A DNA stretch of 64,000 nucleotides, taken from positions 372,001 to 436,000 of the forward strand of contig JABSSW010000024.1 in NCBI GenBank assembly GCA_018902385.1. The letters are read 5' to 3'. The stretch comes from Physcia stellaris. Its lineage: Eukaryota; Ascomycota; Lecanoromycetes; Caliciales; Physciaceae. The notes below the pieces were generated by a model. It made no database searches, was not told where the DNA came from, and worked only from the letters and a program-made list of their open reading frames with translations. Numbering within the stretch: the first letter of the stretch is position 1; each line of letters opens with the position of its first letter. The translations under genes and the position numbers were made by a program. Below, piece by piece: positions 18,256 through 64,000 of the stretch.

Positions 18256-18674
18256 AATCCACAGCCTGAGTAGTATATTTCCGAAGACTGCAACTATAAT
18301 TTTGTAGTTCGTGGTCCGATTGTGCCCTATGACTTACAACAATGAACGTTGTAGTCGAAAGATGGCGAGCTTCACATCGCAGAAGCACATGGGTGACTGC
18401 TAGCTCGGCTTGAAATCACACCCAGGAAACTATTCCAACAGTGAGTCTCGGGGCCGGACAAGAGGCATCGCCTGTCCGAAACCTCTGTGAGAACACATCT
18501 TGGTACCCAAAATGAGTTGAAGGGCCGACCTTCGCAGCAGCCCATCAATACGTAGGATTTACATGATACATAGACTAGATGAGCACGGAGTAAATGACAA
18601 TGATCACAGAGCTTATTCTATCTTCTTCTCCAAGGCTTCAGACGAGCTGAAGGCAATGATGAAAAAATGAACGT
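18256..18674. other. Intergenic region between argB and U2 snRNA
   Basis: I see no coding signal in these roughly 420 bases. They hold the argB 3' region and sequence downstream of the U2 3' end. Confidence 0.45.
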
Positions 18675-18827
18675 GTGTTCGCGTCAACTCGCGGCAGTGT
18701 AAGGCAAGTGACACAGTGCCTGCAAACATGAGCAAGCCCAGAGGTCTGCAGACTAAGACCAAAAATAAATTTAATCATTGATTGTCACCGTAGTGACATT
18801 TCAGAGATTAAACTGAAAAGAACAGAT

Positions 18828-18880
18828 CTGTAGCGGGGTCAGCATTGCTTTAGTTGAGAGTGGAGCGGGTCGCGTCTTAC
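18828..18880 (-). other. Intron-like unit 2 in U2, identical to unit 1
   Basis: An exact base-for-base copy of the unit at 18881-18933, placed head to tail with no spacer. Its acceptor abuts ATCTGTTC of U2. Joining U2 across both units recreates GUGUAGUAUCUGUUC, the conserved branch-site recognition segment. No exonic sequence lies between the two units, so they could leave as one 106-base intron or in two steps. Confidence 0.8.
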
Positions 18881-18933
18881 CTGTAGCGGGGTCAGCATTG
18901 CTTTAGTTGAGAGTGGAGCGGGTCGCGTCTTAC
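18881..18933 (-). other. Intron-like unit 1 in U2 (first in transcript order)
   Basis: Fifty-three bases on the minus strand begin GTAAGACGCGACC and end GACCCCGCTACAG. It has a consensus-like 5' splice site GTAAGA. A branch-site candidate GCTGAC has its A 11 bases before the terminal G, and the acceptor is TACAG. It follows directly after AAGTGTAGT of U2. Its size and signals match the protein-gene introns of this window. Confidence 0.8.
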
Positions 18934-19229
18934 ACTACACTTGATCTAAGCCAAAAGGCAAAGAGAGCTGGGGAAGGAAGAGGGTGTGGGTGCGTGGGCT
19001 TTCAAGTAGTTGAGGGCGAGTGCCGGGTAAGCAATCGGTGGCATGAGCATCACGCTAAGGGACTTATCGTTTCGGCTTCGAATTCGCATGTGAAGGCCCG
19101 ACGTCTCATCTACTAACCCATATCATATCATCCATGATTTGAACAGGTCCTGAACCCCGACTACGCGGGTTACTTATGCGTATACCGTTAATAGATCCCT
19201 AATAATTCACACAAACACGACCATCAGCC

Positions 19230-49947: not shown

Positions 49948-52900
49948 TCACGCGTCCCAGATCTTCTTCAGGCCATCCAGCCACTCTCGCTGTACTTCAA
50001 ATCGTCTATCAATCAGTGCATCGGTCATACGGTTCGCCTCGTCGGTCACTGGGAACATCCTCGTGTGAGGGTGATCACTTGCACAGCGTCTGAACGGCAT
50101 CCGGTTGGTCCTTACTAATTCCAGGCACTTATCGCAAAAGCATACATCATTGCAGATACGGCAGAAGTACAGCTCGGTGTACGATTCTCGTGAAGACATG
50201 CATGGGCCATCACAGGTGTATAACAGCTCGAACCCAGCGTACTTTGGGTTGACCGCCTGTTCCTGACTTACGTCAGTTGCGGCGCCATGTTCAGCAATAT
50301 CCGGAGATTGTGGTTCCCCATGGTCTGAGCCTGGTAAACCTTGAGTAGTTGACGGAGAATTGATGGGAATATCCGTGACTGGTGCTGGTTCCTCGTTGGA
50401 CGGAACGCTTTCTTCTTGCGGCGAGCCAGGAGCTAAGACTGGCTGCTTTGGTGGCTTGTACTGCTCTTCCAACGGTCTCATGGTGATTCCAATCGAAATG
50501 GATGCATTGGGAATATCCCCAGCAAATAAAAGCGCTGCTCCAAGCTGAGAATATGCGTCTTGGTCGTTCCAGGGATCCTCATCAGTCAAAAGGTAGAATG
50601 CCTGTCTGATAGAGGGTCTAATACATGCTCTCCAGACATCATCCTCGACCTTCGCGTACTCGTGCAACCACATACCAAGGGCTAGAGCAGGATATGAAGC
50701 ACGGTAGTAGCGCTTGCTTCCTTGCGTGTGTTGGGCCAGTTCTTCCAGCTTTGTAACATGGGCCGAAGCGTCTATTCCGGACTTAAACGCACTTCTTGCT
50801 GCATCAAAGTGAATGAGGCCTAAGAAAGCAGCAGCTTTCGTTCGATGCCAAGCTTGGGATTGCTGATAAACTTCATTGCTTTCATCAATAAATTTGACAA
50901 TTCGCTGCCACAACGCTGCTGACTCTTCCGGCTGCGGCGCATAATGATATTGCCATTCTGCAGATTGACCTACGTAAATGCTTGCGTTAGTGTTATTCGA
51001 TTAAGAGTGCTGTATGATGTCTCCAGTATGTCTCTGGACCTTCAACATGCTTGAGTCCCGTCATGGGATATAGGTAGGATCGAACATGGTCTGGGATGCC
51101 CAGACGGGAAAGAGACGCCCAGGAACATACTGACCGGCTAACCATACAGGCTTTTCGCCCTCAGCGACGTCATTGGGAGTGAGAGACACCAATCTAGTGA
51201 ATGAGGAAGCCATGAAGTCAAAGACGACAGCGTCGCCAGATTCTTGGACGATTTTTCCGACCTTGTCAAAGACCAACACATTGTAAATTGACCAATGTTG
51301 GGCGCGTAAAAAGACAATCCAAAGTGACCGATTGTCTTCTAGAGTCTCCGTTCTGTCAAGCTCATAGAGTAATGCTGTGATTCGATTATACGCACTTTTC
51401 TGCAGTAGAAATTTGCGTCAGTACTTTCACTCTCGGGCAAGCGTTGAAAATAAAGACATTTCACGGGAAAAAACAAACCTCGAACCCTTGAAACAAACAA
51501 AACGAGCAAGAAAAGGGCGAAAGAACCTACCCTAAATAGTGCCTCTATATAGCTTTTGATACTACCAAGAATGCTGCTGTCACTTGCCAGTCCTGTTCCG
51601 TACGCAAACCCACGGCTAGCTTCGTATGCTTGCTGTGCGATTTCAATAGATCTTTGCTCGTCCCCAATCCTGATATTCCAGTCCGCAATTCTCTCTAGCA
51701 AATAGAAGCTAATTCCATTAAAGGCTTCGGTTGATGGAATGTTTTGTATAGCCTCTTGCATTTGATGAATAGCATTTTCATATTGCTCAAGGTTTCCATA
51801 ACACTTGGCAAGGCCCTCCATCGCAACCCATGAGCCAGACTTCTGGAGCTCGATAGCTGTCCTGAAATAGTCAATGGCGCGGGAAGTGCAATCGTCCTTA
51901 TTAGCTTCCATCATGATCCAGGCCACACCAGTATACCAGTGTTCGGACTTTGGCACCAGCTCATTAGTTGCGATGAGCTCGATGTCCTCCAGAGGGATGT
52001 CCCACAGTGCATAGTCGACGTCTCCAAATGTGCCTTCATCGGTCTGTCGCGGTCAGCGATATCTCCCGTACAACTTAAAACTACTCACCAATTTACTATA
52101 AGCATACATGATCGAAACCTGTCGTTCGGACTTGTCAAGGTATCCTTGGTCATCCCATCCTGTCTTCGTGAGCCACTTCATAGCACAAGCTACGTTCAAT
52201 GGCTGGAATAGCGCCCGTGCAGACGCCTTCACCGACAATACCCAGTCACGCTGCCCCTTGTCAAGCTCATCGATGTGCTCACTTATGATTTTCCGCACAA
52301 GACTTGAGAATCTACTTGTGCTGAGCCATGTCCTGATGAACTCGTCCTCGACTTCATAAGAGCATTGCAGCAACTTTTGCCCATCGCCAAACAGGGACGC
52401 CAGGGACCTAGCCAATTGAACCGCGACCGGACGGTTAATGCTTCCGAAGTCAACTTCCACAAGGTGTTTGATCCAGTTGAGTTTCGCGTAGATCTTCAAA
52501 GAACTGACCGAATAATCGTCAGTATTTTCGCTTTTCAGAATTGTCAAGCAAGACATAACAATATCAAGGCGCTTCAGATTGAGGTTCTTTGGTATAACTG
52601 AGCAGTCATCCCAACGTCTTGTCAGCGGGTCTCCCTCCTCAGTCAAGTAGTCACGAATACGTGCGTGGCTGAAGGACACAGTGGCGTTATTCCAATGCAA
52701 GGGAAAAGTGAATCTGTCTTCACCAGACTCCTGTTTGCCTGAATCCACAGCTTGTACCCACGGTTTTGCAGCTCCTGTGTCATCGTCTGATTTCTCGGAG
52801 TCGTTCCAATTCTTTTCATCCTCATCGCTACTATCAGGGATTTCGAGGAAATCAAAGTCGTCTCTGTCCGAGCCACTATCGATTGCAGCTATGTCAGCCC

Positions 52901-54821
52901 CCGTCTCTAATTCCTCCATTTCTACTGAGGACCCAGTCACATCAAAAAGACTAGAATAACGGGCTCGAAGGTCATCCTCGATCATGAAGCATTGTTGACC
53001 GGCACTGATATGGAGCAGTACGAACAACTCTGAAATGGTCAAAGGACGGTAGGCGCAGAAGACCCAAGAGAGAAGGTCGCATAGGTACGATCGATGCATG
53101 TTTTCGTCGACTTCGAGACGTTTGAAAACATGATAAAGCATGTCATCCAGTCCTTGGGGTGCACCTTGCAAGGATTCCTTGATAGCTTCAGGGGATGGAA
53201 GACCTCGAATCTGGTCAAAGACCAATCTCGCCCAAAGAAACATTCCCTGCGATCTAGTTTGAACGCTGTTGTATATATGCTTTGCCAATGCTTGGAATTC
53301 TTTGATACCCCTTTGCCTCTTCAACACTTTCAGCACGGATACATCACCGAGTCGTTGTCGAATATAAGCCTCAATGTCAACAAGGTTCCTCTCTGGTGTA
53401 ATCTCAATGATCTTTTCGTGAGTACGGAAGTTGACCTTTTCGAACCCTGGATCTGCGCGCACATCGGGCCTTGCAAACACAGCGACCTGTATACGACACT
53501 TGCGGCCATTAGTGTTGCAGGCCAAAAGATCAGCTAAGCAGGATAAAAACTTGACTCTTTCCGCCTCTGGACCTTCATCTAGGCCATCAACGATGATGAA
53601 AGCGAGGCTTGTGAGCGATCGAGCTGACGTGTCTTCTGTGAAAAACTCCAGAAAAAGCTGCTGCCAGATGCGCCTCGCAGACGCGAACGTGTCGTGCTTC
53701 GTGGTAATCGTCGCAATTACATGCTTCTTGAACCGATCGTTGGCATTCGCAATCTGTAAAGCAGCCGCCTTCAAGAACTGAGCACAATCTTGAAGTGCAG
53801 GGTTGTTGTCCTTGAAACTCCAATAACTGACCGAAGTCAAGGAAGGTATATCCGAGTGTTGTGGGTATTTGTTCTGCAACATCTCAATCGTCCTTGCTGC
53901 AAGCATAGTCTTTCCGACACCGGGCTTGCCAAAGACCCATAGTATCGGAGCCTGTTCTTGCTCCCATGCCTTGAACATGGCATCGTCGCGAATCCAATGA
54001 CCAGTATTGGTGGTAAGTTTCTCTACGTTGGTAGCATGCTGACTGGCAATCTCATCGGTAGTCTTTGTTTTCAGTGCCTCGGAAAGCCTTTTCTCCTCTG
54101 CCTCACTGAAGGCTCTCTGCCGATCGCTCCTTTGATTCATTAATACTTCATCGACACCACTCAAAGTATCCCTCGCAGTTGTGCGATTCTCTTTTACCGC
54201 TCTGTATGTTAGAGCGATGACTAGGCCTAGTTCCGCTTCAACGTATCTTCGGAGCTTGGTCAAAATCTTGCTGATGGTATCTTTCTGCGTAAAGACTGAT
54301 CTAGCCCACTCCTTGAACCTTCTCCGCTTGATACAAGCTTCGGCCTCGCCGATTATTTCGAGGAAGTAAGCCAGAATGTCCGTCATCTTTTTCTGCAGGG
54401 ACATCTCCATACCCCCGTGTTCATACTCTCGTAGCCTTATAGTGATTTCGCTCATTTGCTCGAACAGCTCCTCAACGCCGTCGTAGGCTTTGCTAACAGC
54501 TGTGCATGCTTTCATTAGGTACGACGCAGCGCCGAACACAACACAAGCCGGCGCGTATGGGCTGCTCCCAATACCTTTTTGAATGATTTGCAACAGAGGC
54601 TCCATGGGAGCTATGGACTTTGCCATAGCAGAGTATAATTTACGGTTCTCATTGCGGAAGGCACCGAATCGTTCGATTTCTTTCTCAACGACGGTCTCCA
54701 AGTCATCGAGGCGCCGTATATCACGGAATGTATTGTCCTTGTCTATTTTCCGCTCCGTTCGCTTCTCGTACTCACTGACGGCATCGGTCCAGAGAGTATT
54801 GAAGATATCTTGGTCGGCCAT
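49948..54821 (-). CDS. STAND/NLR-type receptor: Goodbye-NACHT-TPR with Cys-rich C-terminus
   Basis: A large signal-transducing NTPase of the fungal NLR type, implicated in non-self recognition in other fungi. The first exon (54821 to about 52086) has a Goodbye-like N-terminal helical domain (FNTLWTDAVSEYEKRTERKI; FGAASYLMKACTAVSKAYDG), then NACHT with Walker A WVFGKPGVGKTML and Walker B FIIVDGLDEGPEAE, then a helical region with an acidic insert. After an intron come TPR-like helices (AIDYFRTAIELQKSGSWVAM; CYGNLEQYENAIHQMQEAIQ). Further exons join as TGLKHVEGQSAEWQYHYAPQ. The last exon has a Cys/His cluster resembling a ZZ finger (CDGPCMSS...FCRICNDVCFCDKCLE...CASDHPHTRMF). About 1,500 residues, intact. 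The ligand is unknown. Confidence 0.85.
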
Positions 54822-55049
54822 GGTTAAGCAGGTGCTTTATTCGCTGAGGGCCAAGTCAGAGAGTATCCATGTACTGGTATGGTGTATGCTACGGATTCTC
54901 TCTGATTCTTCTTTAAAGGACGTCTTACAATACTTTCTAGCAGTACCTTCACACGTCCTGAAAAGGAACAGCTTGGAGATAAGAAGTAGGTAGGTTTTCC
55001 CACAAGGAGAGGGTGATCGTGAATAGATTGGACCCGTGCTGCCGAGGGG
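54822..55049. promoter_or_regulatory. Upstream region of the STAND gene, up to the LINE insertion
   Basis: Some 230 bases separate the receptor's start codon from the target-site duplication of the LINE. The element therefore sits just upstream of the gene, in the same transcriptional orientation, and may limit or supply promoter sequence. Confidence 0.4.
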
Positions 55050-55063
55050 TCCGACGGTCTATA
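55050..55063. repeat. Target-site duplication, copy at LINE 3' end
   Basis: The 14 bases TCCGACGGTCTATA at 55050-55063 recur exactly at 60951-60964, on the other side of the element. Confidence 0.93.
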
Positions 55064-55083
55064 TTGATTGATTGATTGATTGA
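55064..55083 (-). repeat. LINE 3' tail, (TCAA)5
   Basis: Five exact TTGA units on the plus strand, i.e. TCAA in element orientation, directly next to the target-site duplication. Short tandem tails in place of poly(A) are common in fungal LINEs. Confidence 0.88.
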
Positions 55084-55455
55084 TTCATTAAGCACTCGAA
55101 ACCGACCTTAAGGGTCCGTTATGCGGTTAAAAACAACCGAGCCAATCATCTTTTAGAAAATTCTTGACTCTATACAGAATTATTTGCTCTTGATGTTTTG
55201 TTTTTTTATTCGAGCAAATCACTTCAGGCATTTTTATCTTCATGACTTTCTCTCACCTCCACTTTGTACGAAAGTTTCCAATTCAATGCATTTCTTTTGC
55301 AGCCTCTATTCCTCGTCGTCCGTAATTGAAGCTCGTAAATAGCCAATGAGTTCGAATTTTTCGATAAGTTTTGCCGTCTTTGTCAAACTGATCGGATTGA
55401 TCAATACGTTCACCAGTTTTATCTCTTCTCATTTCGCTTTTCTAATCTCGTCAGT

Positions 55456-55656
55456 TCATAGGTCTTTGCGAAGCCTTTTCAGCTTCTTGCATTCGAAGAG
55501 CACGTGCTTGACCGTCTGTTTGTTACACATGCATGAGCACATGAAATTTTCGATCTGCTTTTTGTTGTATAGAAACGCTCGTAGGTCTATTTTGGTCGTG
55601 CGAAGTTGTATTGCTATGACGTTGAGTTTCTTTGTGAGCTTTTCGTGTAATCGCAA
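55456..55656 (-). pseudogene. LINE ORF2 C-terminal Cys/His motif remnant
   Basis: The fragment contains CMCNKQTVKHVLFECKKLKR, matching the CCHC-like motif (Cx2Cx5Hx4C) that ends the ORF2 of Tad-like elements. Confidence 0.7.
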
Positions 55657-55980
55657 TATTGCCTTATTGAATCTCGATGTAATCTTGTACAGGTTTTTTT
55701 CTTTATTGCAGTTTTTTCACTCTTGACTTCATTGTTGTTTTATCGATTTATTCATCACGATCTTGACGGCGCTTTTCAGCATTTGCACGCTCGCTTGTTG
55801 TGTTTTGTGATCGATGTCCATTTCTTTCTTTTTTTTATCTCGTCCCTTCAGCCTTCATTCCGTGGCCTGTTTGGCCGCAACGTCTGCCTGTTCGTTGCCC
55901 TCGATATCGATGTGAATCGGAATTCAGTGCAGTTCCACCTCAATATATCTGTTCCGCAGTTCGTTGATCAACCAGACTAT

Positions 55981-56325
55981 TCATCTCATCAAATACTGGT
56001 CGGAGCTGACTTTTGAGTTGAGCATCGCTTGAATTGCTGTTTGATTGTCGATGCATATGACGAGCTTCGATTTTTTTGCAAACTTCAAGAACGAATGCAA
56101 TCGCATACTCATTGCTAGAACGATGCCGTATAACTCAGCAGAGTAGATCGTGTATGACGTAATGAGTCTCAAATACGCTCTCGTTGTAGTAGGTTTCGTT
56201 TCTGAGAATATCGCTGTTGCATTCATCTTGTCGTTAATGCCGCTCCCATCTGTGTATATGTAATTGATCGAATTCGTTGCTAGTTGTATCTTGTGATACT
56301 TTTCGACTTTCTTCTTGTCCTTCAT
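55981..56325 (-). pseudogene. LINE ORF2 RNase H domain remnant
   Basis: RNase H motifs are visible: IYTDGSGIND (first catalytic Asp), AELYGIVLAMSMRL (catalytic Glu) and VICIDNQTAIQAM (second Asp). The frame is closed on both sides. Confidence 0.85.
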
Positions 56326-56778
56326 GATACGTGCAGTTGGCGATGTCCATCATGACGATGCGACAAAAAGTAAAATTCTCTTCATATCGTGTGTCTTGAT
56401 GTTCGTCTTTCTTTCGAATCTATTCATTAGTTTTTTCAATGGGCTGACGCTTCTCGATTTTCTGATGAAGCGACCGCGTATAATCGTGTCGTATGCTGAG
56501 CTTGTTATCAGTCTCATTGCGAATGCACTGATGAGTCTGTTCAGACGTAGATGCATGAACATTGAGTTGACTTCGATGTTGAGCGTCTTCTTCGAAATCG
56601 CTCTGTATGTTCTCGTTATGACCCTTTCGATCTGATACTGAACGCTCGCTAACCCCTTCGCTACTTCTTTGCTGTGATCTTTTTTTCTCGTCGACGTGTA
56701 TCACATCGAGCATGCGTATGTGAGTTGTGAAACGAAAACCGCCTGCATCATTTGTCTCATTCTCGGGAGCTTAGCATT

Positions 56779-57723
56779 TCATGCAGTGTCGTCAAGGCTG
56801 CGTAATGTTTCTATTGACTTCAATGTTTTCGTTTTGTTTTGACTGACCTGTGCTTTCCAGTTGAGCTTCTCGTCCATTATGACGTTCAGATATTTCATCT
56901 TCTTGCTTGTTTTGACTCTTTGATTAGATTCAGAGAATAATATCGATCCGATGACGTCTGTTTTTTTTCTTCGATTGAAATAAATGAGCTGATACTTGGG
57001 GGGTGCAAACTTCACTTCATGCTTTAGTGCCCACGATACGCAAATCTCTTCGTGTGCTTTGACTATGATATCGTTGCATTTTTCGGGAATGTGATTTTTC
57101 GTCAGCATTTCTACATCGTCGACGAATTCGCTCGCTGAAATATCTCTTTTCTTCAGAGCTTTCAGTAGAAATGCGTTGTAAAAGAGAAAAAGAATCGATG
57201 ACATCGATGAGCCTTGTGGAATTTTTATGAATATTTCGAGCCATTCGGTATCGTACTCGTCCGTCTTCAATATCGTCATTCTGTTGAACAAAAAGAAGTC
57301 AATATATCGTATCAGCTTTTCGTCTAAACGTTTCATTTTGAGATTGTGTAGCAATTTTAAACGTGCTATATTGTCGAAAACGCCCATCACGTCGAGAAGC
57401 ATGATCACGATTATCAACTTTTTGCTCCATGTCGAGTGTATTCGCTTCATCATGTAATGTAGTGCGTGTTTCGTAGACACGACTTTTCTGATTCCGAAAT
57501 GTGTGCGTGGCAGCAGATCGTGCTTCTTCGCCAAAAAGTTGATTCGTTTGATCAATATGAATTCCATGAGCTTGCTTATAGTATTGAGTAGGACTATTGG
57601 TCTGTACGAGATCGCCATTGAGTAAATATTTTTGTCTGACTTACGTAGTGCGATCGTGATCGATTTTCGAAAATGCTTCGGGCAATAGCTCTCGTTCAGG
57701 CTGACGTTGTATATACGTTGCAA
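56779..57723 (-). pseudogene. LINE ORF2 reverse transcriptase domain remnant
   Basis: A 314-residue open stretch with RT motifs: SYRPIVLLNTISKLMEFIL, LLPRTHFGIRK, LDVMGVFDNIARLKLLHNL (motif A, Asp), KIPQGSSMSSILFLFYNAFL (motif B) and SEFVDDVEML (motif C, DD pair), then KYQLIYFNRRKK. Apparent substitutions such as Pro to Ser in motif B, where Tad-type RTs read SPLSP, suggest mutational decay. Confidence 0.92.
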
Positions 57724-58719
57724 ATGTGATGCGATTATATCATTTATTCATTTTCATATTTTATTGATTATGCCGTCGTCGTCTGAAGCCTTGCTCGAGT
57801 TTTGCTTGGCTATGATTTTCGTCATCTCGTGAAGTTGTATGTCTTTCAGCTTCAGATTTTGATTGTATGTGACTCTCTGTATGTCGGTTAGAACAACCGT
57901 AAGCGGCGAAGAAAAGAACTTTTTCAGCAATATGAGTGCTTTTTTGATTGAGTCAATTTCGAGCAACATGAATGAGTGATCGTGTAAAGTCGACAAACAA
58001 ATCTCTCTTGAAATACGATTTCTTGCTCATTTGCATGCCTTTCACATGCTGTTTGATGTATCACATCTTTCTTCGGTTTTTTTTCTGTATTGTGCTTTCA
58101 TGACTTTAGAGACTACGTGGCTCAAACGATTTCTCACTTTCTTGTACGACTTTCACAGATTCTCGATTTTGCCGTTGCTTTGATATCTTCTTTTGGTCGA
58201 TTTGATCGTTCTCGATGTCTGCTTGCATTCTTCGGTGAATTTTGATTTCGCGTAAACACTCGGTTTGCTGATCGAAATGACTGTTTCGATGATTGCTTGA
58301 ATGATTTTTATCAATTTCTTGACTTGGCCGTCGATTTTCTCTGCCTGATTGTTGTACGTGTCGCTGCTGAGAATGAGCGTTTCGCTATTCGTGATTCTCG
58401 CCTGCAACTTCTCGCGTAATATATCGATATCTGCTTTCGTTCAGGTTTTTGTGATTTTCGGCTCGATCGTTCTCGTTCGCAAATTGAATATCGTCTTAAT
58501 TGGGCGATGATTCGAGTGATTGTTCATGCTCTCGTCGATGTCGATTTCGATCATGCTGTCTCGAAGCAACGATGTTGCGTATGTGAAATCGATTGTGCTC
58601 TCGCTCGTGTGTCTACTTCATGTAATTAACTCGATTGGTGTGACTCTCTTCAGCTTATATTTCTTTATCGTGACTATGAGTTCGTATGCGTTCGCGTTTG
58701 CTCTCACATGTGATTTTTC

Positions 58720-59175
58720 TCAATTGAAGTGATGTAGATTAAAATTCCTCACGACGACGTGTTCTTCGTTGACTCCTTCTTGCATCGCGTTCTTAAGGCT
58801 GAATATCGCGCTGAGGTTTTCGCTGCTTTTGCATGAATTATACATGTTGTGAATGTTGATAACTCTGTCGTCCGCGATTTGCATTTTTAACGAGATCAGA
58901 TTTCTGTTGTGAAACGTGTGAAAGTACTCGATTTTCGCTATTCTCTTGTTGACGAACATGCACACTCTCGTGATTGCATCGGACATGTACAATAGCTCGA
59001 ACTGTTGCGAGAGCCTGTTGTTTGTCGTGAGCTGAAATGAGTTCTTCCATGATTTCTGCATGACCAATATATCGAATTTCTCTATGCCTTCTGTCTCGAA
59101 CAGCGGTATCATGACCTGAGTTTTCGAGTTGTTGACGTTGTACTGTAATATCGATAGTGTGTCGTTTTCTAACAT
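58720..59175 (-). pseudogene. LINE ORF2 endonuclease domain remnant
   Basis: The start LSILQYNVNNSKTQVMIPLF and the segments FDILVMQKSW and VINIHNMYNS resemble the N-terminal apurinic-type endonuclease of LINE ORF2 (QxNxxxS and ILxxQE blocks). It is separated from the RT part by broken frames. Confidence 0.82.
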
Positions 59176-60800
59176 TCTTTCACTGTTTTGAATCTCGTAT
59201 TTCGATTCGTGACGTCAGCTAGAGATGTTCTGATGATCGTGAACGAGAAACTTTCTCCTTTTTCAGACTTCTCATATCTCTTTCTGATCACTGATGTTTT
59301 CTTATTCTTAATCGATGACGTCGATTTATCATTTCTTTTGTTTCGAGATTTCTGTGAGCTTGAAAATAGTTGCGATGACATCATTGTTTCGATCGACAAA
59401 ATCATTTTCACGTGAAATTCATGCGCGTTCGTCTTTCTGCGTTTGCTGATCTCGTCTAAATAAATCTTTTTTCTTTGTGATTTTTCGATGTCTCGTCGTT
59501 GTAATTCTCTTAGTTGACTGAATTTCTTCGCAGCGATTGCCGTTTCTGAGTCTCCGTGAGTTGTATTCATCGATTCCGGAATCGTTATCATCTTGTTGAC
59601 GACGATGTATTGCTGTCTTTGAACCTCGAATCTCGCTGACGTAATCGAGCGTTGATACATGATTCTCTCGATCTTCTTTTGCTTTTTTCTGCATTCTTTT
59701 CTTCATGAGTTATGTGCTTCTTCACATACACAGCATTTGATTTTGTAATCTTTTGCACACTTCTTCTCTTTTGTAGCATGCGCATTTGCGCAGTAATCGC
59801 ACCGTTCTTTTTTTGTGCATTGAATTGTATTGTGCTCGTGATGATGACATTTATAACATTGAATAGTTCTGCATGTCTTGTTGAACACTGAGCAAGCTCT
59901 CAGCTTCCCTCCGATCATGATGCTGTTGTTCAGCATACTGTTACCCATTTCTGAAATAGTGATTTCAATAACCAAAAAATGATATTGCTGCATTGCCGTG
60001 AGCTTGTTCCTCCAAAACACGTACAGAATTTCCATTTCTCTTAACTTCTCCACGTTCTCGTTCTTTTCTCTGATTTTACGCATCGCCGTTTCTCTACCTT
60101 CTGCCGTTGTTAAGTCGAATTTCTTGACCTCTATTCCGCTGATCATGACCGCGTAAATCGAAACGATCGCTCTCGCTCTCCTATCGAGTATCGCCGTTCA
60201 TGCACTGTTGTCTCGCAATTTTTCTGCTTTCTTTGCGTTTATCGCGTGTATCGCGAAATCATCACTCGAAAGCTTCTTGATCGCTCGAATATTCTTGATC
60301 TGTATGTTCTTTTTCGTAATGCACGTGTTGATCTCATTGACGATACGTTTGATCTCGTATTGACTCAACTGTTGCTTCTTCTCGCTGTCGTTGAGACGTA
60401 CTATGATTTCGATGTTCTTGTTTGCGGTGATTCTGAGCGCTGAAAAAGCCGCAACGACGACTGCCCAATTGCGTGAATTCGCCTTGATCGTGAAAAAAAA
60501 AAAAAATTTGAAAGAAATGATTATTTCTGTAATTCCATGACGAATCATGACATTGCTTTCCTTCATTTTCGCGTGCCTTTTGCTGAACTGAGCAGTCATT
60601 TTGTCCATTGCGTCCATCATATCTCTTTGAATGAATGCAAATTGCGTGTCTTCAAGATATGTCACGACGACTGTAAGCCAACCCTCAATGACCTCTGATG
60701 ATGATTTTTCTTTTGCTCGAACGAGCTCTCGGCATTTTTTGATGTTCTTCAGCAACATTGTTTCTTGCTCGTGAACGTTTTCGTTCGTTTGATTTAACAA
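59169..60800 (-). pseudogene. LINE ORF1 (gag-like) remnant with CCHC knuckles
   Basis: Three open pieces (60198-60800, 59703-60146, 59169-59660) form a charged, helical protein. In the middle piece there are three zinc-knuckle-like motifs: CYKCHHHEHNTIQC (Cx2Cx4Hx4C), CDYCANAHATKEKKC and CCVCEEAHN. This is the usual RNA-binding ORF1 of Tad-like elements. Confidence 0.82.
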
Positions 60801-60950
60801 CGATCATGTTACTCTCCTCATCATCATCAATTGCTCACTGATCGGTGCGCAAAGGTTCGGCGATTCGAATGACGCGTTAATCAGGTCAATATCACGTTTC
60901 GTTGTTGAGTTATTTCAAAAATTGGGTTTGTAGCATAAATTGTGTTTTTC

Positions 60951-60964
60951 TCCGACGGTCTATA
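60951..60964. repeat. Target-site duplication, copy at LINE 5' end
   Basis: TCCGACGGTCTATA, identical over 14 bases to 55050-55063. Confidence 0.93.
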
Positions 60965-61806
60965 AGAAGGCGGAAGTAGGCAATAAGCTCAGGGTTAGGA
61001 GCCGTATCACGGCATTGCATGAGCTGCAAATAAACCGGGAGTGCCAGTGCATGAGACATCTTAGATCCACTCGCTGAGTCCATCTGGCTTTCATTGCTTC
61101 TCCACATCATTGACATTCCGTCTTGGACCGGGTGCTGCGAGTTATGGGTGCGGACTGAAGAGTCACATCGCCATGGTCACGGCATGCATGGCATTTCCCG
61201 GCCTGCCAAGCCGTAATTCCGACAGAAATTAAGGTTACATGTAGTAGTATGCCCGTCTTCGGTATTCGGAACGCACAATGATATGAATAGGTAATGTACA
61301 TACATGTAGGATTCTAGACTTGGCGTATATCGGTTCGCTCGATTTTGGGTGGATGATTGTGGGATGAGATCCGCACTCCATTTTGCCAGAGTTGGCATCC
61401 AAATCGAGGATATCCCCGTTACATACTCTCTATGGTATGGTGTTCCTCCATCTGATCAAGAGGCTAACTGAGCGAATATTCTGCGGTTGAGGCAAGCATC
61501 GCTGCTCCGTCACCTATCTGCCCTGCAATGTTGAGCACCAGCAAGCAGATCTAGATACATGTATTTTTTCCTTTTTATCCATCATCAGCTTCGCTGAATC
61601 AACGCCACCGGTGATCGTTGAGATCCTCTTTTTCCAATAAACATCCCCCTAAAGCGAAAGCGCATTGAGTCATGTTGTTGAACATAGACATCATGGTATC
61701 ATCTCGTCTCTCGTCATCCCATTCAATCCCACACACGCCAACTTTTCCCCACCCAACAACGACAACAACAGCTCCCTTCCTCCCTCACATTGCTTACGGC
61801 TCGGCT
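60965..61806. other. Intergenic region LINE to MET6
   Basis: No supported gene. Short minus-strand frames at 60910-61398 lack motifs. The part near 61700-61806 is likely the MET6 3' UTR. Confidence 0.45.
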
Positions 61807-64000
61807 TTAATTGGCCTTAGCATACTTCTCTCGGTAAAACTTGGCCGCATTGACCATATTTATCAAGCTCGTCTTCGTCTCCTTCCACTGCCTGGTCTTG
61901 AGCCCACAGTCCGGATCAATCCACAGCTGCTCAGGGCTCAAATACTGCAACATCTCCTGAATGCGATCCTTGATCTCGTCCTCGCTCGGAACACGCGGTG
62001 AGTGGATATCGTACACACCGGGGCCGATATGTCTCGGGTAAGCCTCATCGACGAACACCTTGAGGAGCTTGGCATCGCTCTTGCTGTTTTCGATCGACAG
62101 CACGTCAGCGTCGAGGGCCGCGATAGCGGAGAAGAAGTCCTGGAACTCAGAGTAGCAGAAGTGGCTGTGGATTTGGGTGGAGTCTTTGACGCCGCAAACG
62201 GAGAGGCGGAAGGATTTCACGGCCCAGGAGAGGTAATTCTCACGCTCGAGGCCTTGACGGAGGGGGAGACCTTCGCGTAGGGCGGGCTCGTCAACTTGGA
62301 TAACGTAAACGCCGGCGGCTTCAAGGTCGACGACTTCATCACGCAGGGCGAGGGCGAGCTGCTCGGCTTGGACGGATTGGTGGATGTCGTCACGCGGATA
62401 GGACCAGCGGAGGCAGGTGATGGGACCGGTAAGCATGCCTTTCATGGGTTTATTGGAGATTGAGGCGGCATATTTTGATTCTTTGACCGTCATGGGCTTG
62501 GGGCGCGAGATATCTCCCACAATAATGGGAGGACGCACGCAACGTGAGCCATAGCTTTGTACCCAGGCGTGAGTGGTGAAGACGTAACCGGTGAGGCGCT
62601 CGCCGAAGTACTGTACCATGTCGTTACGCTCGGGTTCGCCGTGAACGTACACGTCAAGGCCGAGCTCCTCTTGGATTTTGACAACATCCTGAATTTCTTT
62701 CTCAATGAACTTCTCATACTCTTCTTCGGTGATCTCGCCTTTGGTGAACTTGTTGCGCTGAATTCGAATTTCTTTGGTTTGTGGAAACGAGCCAATGGTA
62801 GTAGTTGGGAACAGAGGGAGATTCAGCAGCTTCTGCTGTTGTGAGATTCTTGTTGGGAATGGAGATTGACGGTTGAACATCTCCTCGGTGATTTTTGACT
62901 GGCGCTCTTTGACTTTGGGATCATTCGTTCGCACGGATGTCGAACGAGCTTCAATTGATTTTGCATTGGCTTCTAGCTGATCCCGAACGCTGGATGGGCC
63001 ATCTGTTACTGCCTTGGCGATAGTGGTTAATTCGCTAGCTTTTTGAACTGCAAAACTGAACCAGTCCTTGACATCGTCTTCAAGTTTCTTCTCGCTTTCA
63101 AGAGTGTGAGGAGTGTGGAGTAGGGAGCTGGAGCTAGCGATGATCACTCGGTCCTTGTCGAGTTTCTGGACGGCGGTCTCGGCTTTCTCAATCGCCTTCT
63201 TAAAGTTGGTTTTCCAGATATTTCGACCATCTACGACACCGACTGATAGTATTTGTTTGGGGCCCAGTGCTCCAATGACGGTCTCAAGCTGCTCTGGATT
63301 GCGGACAAGGTCAATGTGGATACCGTACACATTGGAAAGTGCGGGAAGAACATCAAGATTGTGTGTGATGTCACCGAAGTAGGTCGCAAGGACAAGGTTT
63401 GGTATTTTGTCTCCCAGACTGGTGAGCTTCTCATACGCTGGTTTGAAGGCATTCTTGACTCTCGGAGGTAGGTCGAAGACTAGGCTAGGCTCGTCAATTT
63501 GGACCGTGTCTACTCCGGCTTCTTTCAGCTTGGTCAACAGCTCTTCGTAAACCGGCAGCAGCTCTTCAAGCAGGCTGATGGGCTCCACCTTTTGGCCACG
63601 ATCCGCTTTACCAAGTGCGAGGAACGTTACTGGACCCACAAGGACTGGACGCGTGTGAATTCCGGCTTCTTTAGCCTCCAAAAACTCGGCGACAGGCTTT
63701 GGGTTCGACTTGAGCTTGAATTTCTGCCCGTCCTGTAGCGTGGGCTTGACGTAGTGATAGTTGCAGTCAAACCATTTCACCATTTCCTATTTACGTCAGG
63801 ACATGAGCTTACCATAAAGGCGACGACGAGATACGTACTAGACTCGGAACATCGACTGCAGACTCCTTGTCGGTCTGAGGTTTTTGGAGGCCTCTGCCCA
63901 TGGCAAAGAACTCATCGATTGGATCAAGGTTATATTTGGTGTATTTGTCAGGTATACACTAGGGTCAGGGTCAGTGTGTGATCTGAGCATGCAATCTGGA
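61807..64000 (-). CDS. MET6: Cobalamin-independent methionine synthase (5' end outside window)
   Basis: It transfers a methyl group from 5-methyltetrahydrofolate polyglutamate to homocysteine. The main exon runs from about 63789 to 61807. A 48-base intron precedes it, and an upstream exon at about 63841-63959 reads IPDKYTKYNLDPIDEFFAMG to SAVDVPSL, joining EMVKWFDCNYHYVKPTLQDG. The remaining N-terminus (roughly 90 residues by comparison with the family) lies beyond 64000, after an intron with CTGACCCTAG. Motifs include VQIDEPSLVFDLP, FPTTTIGSFPQTKEIR, HGEPERNDMVQYFGE, VYVIQVDEPALREG, and zinc ligands in QIHSHFCYSEF (His, Cys) and LWIDPDCGLKTR (Cys). Intact within the window. Confidence 0.95.

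What the first reader, a model, noticed from the sequence alone, without database searches (positions are those of the whole stretch)
18675..18969. Spliceosomal-type introns inside the U2 snRNA gene, at the branch-site recognition element
The minus strand carries a clear U2 (5' domain, IIb stem with UACG loop, Sm site), but GUGUAGU and AUCUGUUC are separated by 106 bases that look exactly like short fungal introns (GTAAGA, CTGAC, TACAG). The split falls within GUAGUA, the element that pairs with branch sites. Precise removal recreates the conserved sequence. The spliceosome would then depend on splicing its own U2 precursor. Introns in snRNA genes are known (U6 of Schizosaccharomyces pombe; snRNA genes of a Rhodotorula yeast, from memory) and have been explained by reverse splicing near the catalytic core. 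This position fits that idea well.
Basis: partly seen in the sequence, partly recalled or inferred. Interest (0 to 1): 0.92.

Follow-up and report, generated by a model that had tools for sequence, protein, structure and literature searches.

The report
Doubled intron inside fungal U2 gene
In a fungus (probably a filamentous ascomycete), the gene for U2, an RNA the splicing machine needs to remove introns, is itself cut by an intron at the element that recognises introns, and in this copy the intron sits there twice in perfect tandem; an intron in U2 was known from one yeast, but the exact doubling is unusual and bears on how introns copy themselves.

Summary
A U2 snRNA gene (Rfam E 4.6e-17) lies on the minus strand at 18675-18969. 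Its GUAGUA element is split GUAGU|A by 106 nt, which are an exact tandem of one 53-nt unit (GTAAGA...GCTGAC...CTACAG) whose ends are fixed at the splice sites. Three U2 loci were found in the genome: this one (C24); C45, with a single 60-nt intron at the same nucleotide; and C3, uninterrupted but divergent. Between C24 and C45, 184 of 190 exon columns are identical, against 40 of 60 for the intron, so the split genes look selected. Both carry the two upstream elements shared with U1 and U4; C3 lacks one. A pseudogene is therefore unlikely. Dependence of the spliceosome on splicing its own U2 is plausible but unproven, since C3 could bypass it. An intron in U2 is a known kind (Rhodotorula hasegawae, 1993). 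New here: the base-exact doubling (a zero-length exon, CAG|GTAAG), the probable ascomycete host, and a probable intron in loop I of the only U5 found. Reverse splicing of the intron at its own junction fits the doubling; a chance DNA duplication is not excluded. No RNA data were available.

The parts
19051..19065 (-). upstream element AAGTCCCTTAGCGTG at about -96, shared with U1, U4 and the C45 U2 gene
19018..19029 (-). proximal element TACCCGGCACTC at about -60, shared with U1 and all three U2 loci (first nine bases in U4)
18934..18969 (-). U2 exon 1 (36 nt), ends GTGTAGT; the 5' end is inferred from homology
18881..18933 (-). intron copy 1 (53 nt), GTAAGA...GCTGAC...CTACAG, predicted branch A at 18892
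18828..18880 (-). intron copy 2 (53 nt), identical to copy 1, predicted branch A at 18839; junction CAG|GTAAG with copy 1 (zero-length exon)
18675..18827 (-). U2 exon 2 (153 nt), starts ATCTGTTC; stems IIa, IIb, Sm site, stems III and IV; the 3' end is inferred from homology
18621..18667 (-). 3' flank TTTTTTCATCAT...hairpin-like...GGAGAAGAAGA, similar (by eye) downstream of the other U2 and the U1 genes; possible 3'-end signal
   Evidence: by eye only

Best explanation
This is a working U2 snRNA gene whose primary transcript carries a spliceosomal intron inside the GUAGUA element, present as two perfect head-to-tail copies. The transcript cannot act as U2 until the insert is removed. Removal can go as one 106-nt excision or as two 53-nt excisions in either order; every route ends in the same junction, so the doubling is harmless. 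The intron is older than the C24/C45 gene duplication; the doubling is recent and specific to C24. U2 made from C24 and C45 thus needs pre-existing spliceosomes, with the divergent uninterrupted C3 copy as a possible bypass. Shown: anatomy, paralogue, conservation pattern, promoter elements. Inferred: transcription, splicing, share of the U2 pool, history.
For: Rfam U2 match; insert flush between two halves of the conserved sequence; intron at the same nucleotide in the C45 paralogue, same donor and branch, branch-to-AG 11 nt in both, intron sequence diverged; C24 vs C45 exons 184/190 columns identical, intron 40/60, 150 nt upstream 92/160, downstream 88/167 (Fisher exons vs intron p 1.9e-9); lower stem III: 8 of 8 pairs form in each of three copies, one both-side change C24 vs C45 and five C24 vs C3 (stem read by hand, counted); snRNA upstream elements complete in C24 and C45; splice signals agree with published fungal ones except the last donor base; all three removal routes give the same product.
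Against: No RNA evidence. An uninterrupted U2 exists (C3, 112.4 bits as it stands; the split copies score 92.2 and 90.0 because the model does not see through the intron). A scan for intron-like signals in 264 kb gave no excess over shuffles (130 vs 124.8 +/- 9.8), so the signals alone prove little. RNAalifold on the three sequences found only 2 of 56 pairs with both-side changes, with stem III misaligned. Exon identity could in part be gene conversion.
Confidence: 0.85

Rival explanations
1. Disrupted pseudogene: the insert kills this copy, and the uninterrupted C3 gene makes the cell's U2.
For: C3 holds the one exact uninterrupted GTGTAGTATCTGTTC in the genome and has the proximal promoter element.
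Against: Exons of C24 and C45 conserved while introns and flanks diverged; C3 lacks the distal promoter element (9/15) and has an extra A in the conserved GATCAAG stretch and changes next to the Sm site.
Confidence: 0.07
2. On the origin of the doubling: an ordinary DNA-level tandem duplication (for example repair of a staggered break) that happened to fall on the intron borders; splicing then removes 106 nt as one longer intron.
For: Tandem duplications of this size occur in the genome: 2 others in 264 kb, both in open reading frames. Short tandem duplications are a published route to complex introns (PMC7138796, passages).
Against: No microhomology and exact coincidence with both splice sites; 1 of 1431 sub-segments of a 53-nt intron if all were equally likely, which is an assumption.
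Confidence: 0.5
3. The second copy is an assembly error and the gene has one 53-nt intron.
For: The copies are 100% identical; reads could not be inspected.
Against: 106 nt is shorter than ordinary reads, and an assembler has no reason to break at splice sites (inference).
Confidence: 0.06

Closest known systems
mRNA-type intron of the Rhodotorula hasegawae U2 snRNA gene (Takahashi et al. 1993, Mol Cell Biol 13:5613; title seen in the reference list of PMC2586383; paper not held; details recalled)
   Same: a short spliceosomal intron in U2 at or next to the branch-recognition element (position recalled)
   Different: there a basidiomycete yeast and one intron copy (recalled); here probably an ascomycete, an exact tandem of two, two intron-bearing paralogues and one uninterrupted
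intron of the fission yeast U6 snRNA gene (PMC10484740, passages)
   Same: mRNA-type intron near catalytic nucleotides of an snRNA, attributed to reverse splicing
   Different: another snRNA, single intron; U6 is uninterrupted here
introns of fungal U3 snoRNA genes (PMC5832005, section 3.2 read)
   Same: normal spliceosomal introns in structured RNA genes; paralogues with and without introns occur
   Different: U3 is not part of the spliceosome; in the four U3 genes with two introns these are unrelated and lie at separate places
spliceosomal twin introns and zero-exon recursive splicing in fungi (PMC7138796 and PMC5033589, passages)
   Same: abutting introns removable in one or two steps; internal exon of size zero
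   Different: those are in protein or snoRNA-cluster transcripts; none of the passages seen shows two identical introns flush in an snRNA gene
introner-like elements / intron transposition (PMC3443670 and PMC8469720, passages)
   Same: an intron copy inserted seamlessly; the review argues reverse splicing may favour positions already spliced
   Different: here the copy lies beside its parent; a search with the insert found no other copy (it also missed the 67% similar C45 intron, so only near-identical copies are excluded)

Membership tests
U2 snRNA | Rfam U2 covariance model above its cut-off | tested here: met
   92.2 bits, cut-off 46
U2 snRNA | 5' domain with GAUCAAGUGUAGUAUCUGUUC | tested here: met
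   only after removal of the insert
U2 snRNA | Sm site and stems III and IV | tested here: met
   aligned; lower stem III 8 of 8 pairs
U2 snRNA | expressed and part of the spliceosome | not testable with these tools
   no RNA or protein data
spliceosomal (U2-type) intron | donor GTRWGT, branch RCTRAC, acceptor YAG, branch-to-acceptor 6-36 nt (PMC5832005) | tested here: met
   GTAAGA (one base off), GCTGAC, CAG, 11 nt in both copies; C45 GTAAGA, GCTGAC, TAG, 11 nt; a signal scan had no power over shuffles
spliceosomal (U2-type) intron | removed from the transcript by the spliceosome | not testable with these tools
   no RNA data
recursive splicing at a zero-length exon | AG|GT junction between abutting introns | tested here: met
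   CAG|GTAAG at 18881/18880
recursive splicing at a zero-length exon | consecutive reactions actually use that junction | not testable with these tools
   needs RNA; one 106-nt excision is equally possible
introner-like element | several near-identical copies at different places of the genome | tested here: not met
   search with the 106 nt found only itself; limited sensitivity

The most novel reading that the evidence does not exclude
The excised U2 intron was reverse-spliced, by a spliceosome still holding it, into a U2 precursor (or its R-loop DNA) exactly at the existing splice junction, and the doubled form was copied back into the gene. The gene would be a fresh footprint of spliceosomal reverse splicing inside the RNA that recognises branch sites, matured by zero-exon recursive splicing, in a fungus whose U2 (two of three loci found) and only detected U5 both need splicing to mature.
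Probability: 0.35. Interest if true: 0.86.

Novelty: new variant of a known kind. Interest (0 to 1): 0.62.

Why it matters
How introns spread is unsettled: reverse splicing is a favoured route, yet direct traces are few (PMC3443670, passages). An intron copied flush against itself, base-exact at both ends and 100% identical, in the gene of a core spliceosomal RNA, is a trace one would expect if reverse splicing prefers already-spliced positions. It also offers a natural circular dependence (spliceosome RNAs that need the spliceosome to mature), with an uninterrupted paralogue as a possible starter, testable by ordinary RNA sequencing.

Tried and rejected
Introner family: the genome was searched with the 106-nt insert and only the insert itself was found; the search also missed the 67% similar C45 intron, so it excludes near-identical copies only. 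Signal scan: 130 intron-like stretches in 264 kb against 124.8 +/- 9.8 in 10 shuffles, not informative; introns modelled by eye in neighbouring protein genes and a published consensus were used instead. RNAalifold on three sequences misaligned stem III and found 2 both-side changes; I replaced it by a hand reading of the Rfam alignments (counted), which is open to choice. Split and intact U2 patterns in viral and prokaryotic collections: 0 matches in each of three scans, expected for a eukaryotic gene, so no comparison with other species was possible. Species: not obtained; a filamentous ascomycete is inferred from MetE (best solved structure 4ztx, recalled as Neurospora crassa, 1129.4 bits against 863.6 for the next) and from DUF3984 and Goodbye/NACHT proteins (the taxonomic meaning is recalled). 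Mevalonate decarboxylase was not informative for this. Pseudogene and assembly error were considered and judged unlikely.

Full report
What is there. The minus strand of 18675-18969 encodes U2 snRNA. Rfam's U2 model matches 18865-18673 with 92.2 bits (cut-off 46, E 4.6e-17), the one Rfam match in the window at E<=0.01. The 5' domain lies further upstream because 106 nt interrupt it: exon 1 (18969-18934) ends GATCAAGTGTAGT, exon 2 (18827-18675) starts ATCTGTTC. Joined, they give the conserved GATCAAGTGTAGTATCTGTTC; the cut falls between the fifth and sixth base of GUAGUA.

The insert is a perfect tandem of two identical 53-nt units. Comparing flanks with unit ends gives a slide of 0 in both directions, so the unit begins at the donor GT and ends at the acceptor AG with no freedom. 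Each unit has GTAAGA, GCTGAC and CTACAG with 11 nt from the branch A to the end. The published fungal pattern is GTRWGT, RCTRAC, YAG and 6-36 nt (PMC5832005, section 3.2 read); only the last donor base departs. Introns modelled by eye in neighbouring protein genes look alike, for example GTACGT...CCTGAC...AAATAG in MetE. A scan for such signals in 264 kb gave no excess over shuffles (130 vs 124.8 +/- 9.8), so the signals alone are weak evidence.

Other copies. In the genome (44 Mb, 147 contigs) the U2 model found three loci over the cut-off (46 of 1000 first-look candidates were scored, so this is a lower bound). C45 has one 60-nt intron at the same nucleotide, with the same donor GTAAGA and branch GCTGAC, 11 nt from branch to end, acceptor TAG, and 40 of 60 columns identical to the C24 unit. 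C3 is uninterrupted and divergent: 156 of 200 columns identical to C24, an extra A in the GATCAAG stretch. The exact string GTGTAGTATCTGTTC occurs once in the genome, in C3.

Why the split genes are probably alive. Between C24 and C45, 184 of 190 exon columns are identical, against 40 of 60 in the intron, 92 of 160 upstream and 88 of 167 downstream (Fisher, exons vs intron, p 1.9e-9). Gene conversion would have had to skip the intron in the middle, so purifying selection on a spliced product is the simpler reading. In the lower part of stem III, read by hand from the Rfam alignments, 8 of 8 pairs form in each copy, with one both-side change between C24 and C45 and five between C24 and C3. The automatic alignment misplaced this stem and counted 2 both-side changes among 56 pairs. 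C3 keeps its stem too, so it may also be functional.

Promoters. Two elements stand before the genes: AAGTCCCTTAGCGCG near -100 and TACCCGGCACTC near -65. At 14/15 or better the first is before 6 of 6 U1, 1 of 1 U4 and 2 of 3 U2 genes (C24, C45), not before C3 (9/15), U5 (9/15) or U6 (7/15). The second at 11/12 or better is before 6 of 6 U1 and 3 of 3 U2; U4 has 9/12; U5 and U6 have 7/12. TACCCGGCA alone is not rare (5 in 264 kb). The combined pattern TTAGCGN{12,40}TACCCGGCA occurs 12 times in the genome against 1 for the reversed control: before 5 U1, 2 U2, 1 U4 and 1 U3 snoRNA gene, and at 3 unassigned places. So the two intron-bearing U2 genes have both elements and the uninterrupted one has only one, the opposite of what the pseudogene reading predicts.

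How it works (inferred). The transcript cannot pair with branch sites until the insert is out. Enumeration gives three routes (both copies at once, first copy first, second copy first), all ending in exon 1 joined to exon 2. The two-step routes pass through a single-intron form like that of C45. The doubling thus costs nothing, and CAG|GTAAG is a zero-length exon. Splicing with an internal exon of size zero has been seen in Candida snoRNA clusters (PMC5033589, passages), and a Lipomyces complex intron can be removed in one or two steps (PMC7138796, passages).

Origin of the doubling. In 264 kb (window plus 20 stretches of 10 kb) a scan for tandem duplications with units of 30-200 nt at 95% identity or more gave 13 hits, 10 of them set aside as low-complexity; of the 3 left one is this insert and the other two lie in open reading frames. 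One of those two also has a register beginning GT and ending AG, inside an uninterrupted frame, so it is no intron. A duplication inside a 53-nt intron could use any of 1431 sub-segments; only one is the intron itself. That argues for a process that knows splice sites, and reverse splicing at an existing junction is the obvious candidate: a review argues it may occur mainly at positions already spliced (PMC3443670, passages). The uniform choice is an assumption and this is one event seen after the fact, so I give a chance DNA duplication somewhat better odds (0.5) than reverse splicing (0.35). These two odds concern the origin only, not whether the gene works.

U5. The one U5 found (C3:186993-187158, 48.8 bits, cut-off 40) has 49 nt between GCCTTTTAC and the 3' side of loop I: GTGAGT...ACTAAC...TAAAG|CAG, again 11 nt from branch to end. 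The first AG after the branch restores an 11-nt loop between AUCU and AGAU; the next AG (52 nt) does not, although both joined forms have the same predicted energy, -28.9. A blast of the gene and two patterns found no other copy, but a divergent U5 could be missed, and this gene lacks the promoter elements above. U6 (1 locus) is uninterrupted. U1 (6 loci, all below the Rfam cut-off) and U4 (1) show no obvious intron (alignments viewed for 2 of 6 U1 and for U4).

Against what is known. An intron in U2 is not new: Takahashi et al. 1993 reported an mRNA-type intron in U2 of Rhodotorula hasegawae (title seen in the reference list of PMC2586383; paper not held; its details, and introns in U1 and U5 of that yeast, are recalled). 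The fission yeast U6 intron is attributed to reverse splicing near the catalytic nucleotides (PMC10484740, passage). A 2017 survey calls U3 and U6 the only small structured RNAs known to be often interrupted (PMC5832005), and in its four U3 genes with two introns these are unrelated. My ten paper searches, in an open-licence library and judged from titles and abstract starts, listed no report of a tandem-doubled intron in an snRNA gene or of a U2 intron in a filamentous ascomycete; that is a weak negative.

Verdict. A real, very probably functional intron-split U2 gene of a known kind, with a new feature: base-exact doubling of the intron. The self-dependence claim is plausible but limited by C3. 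Transcription, splicing and mechanism remain untested.

Noticed in passing
L006 1501-1666 (own genome C3:186993-187158, +): The one U5 snRNA gene found has a probable 49-nt spliceosomal intron in loop I, directly after GCCUUUUAC; if it is the only U5, all U5 needs splicing to mature.
   Followed up: partly
L039, about 1593-2028 (own genome C22 near 449907, +): Both snRNA promoter elements precede an unnamed RNA of roughly 435 nt that ends with an Sm-like site AATTTTTGG, a short hairpin and a T-rich 3' flank like those of U1 and U2; no Rfam match at E<=1. Candidate new Sm-class RNA; ends by eye.
   Followed up: partly
L036 1531-1934 (own genome C1 near 792206, +): U3 snoRNA gene (149.7 bits) with the same promoter elements; by eye a GTAAGC...CAACAG intron near its 5' end, as is usual in Pezizomycotina (PMC5832005).
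   Followed up: partly
L001 1501-1702 (own genome C3:769218-769419, -): Divergent uninterrupted U2 with an extra A before the branch-recognition element and changed bases beside the Sm site, stem III kept by paired changes: a variant U2 or a decaying copy.
   Followed up: partly
L044 (own genome C34 near 464694, -) and L042 (C27 near 528208, -): Two further places with the combined promoter pattern and no Rfam match at E<=1; L042 has a poor distal element and may be chance.
   Followed up: no
window 54000-62000: G+C falls to about 0.40 around a reverse-transcriptase ORF (56779-57723 minus, RVT_1) next to a Goodbye/NACHT protein gene (52053-54821 minus): looks like a decayed retroelement in AT-rich DNA.
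   Followed up: no
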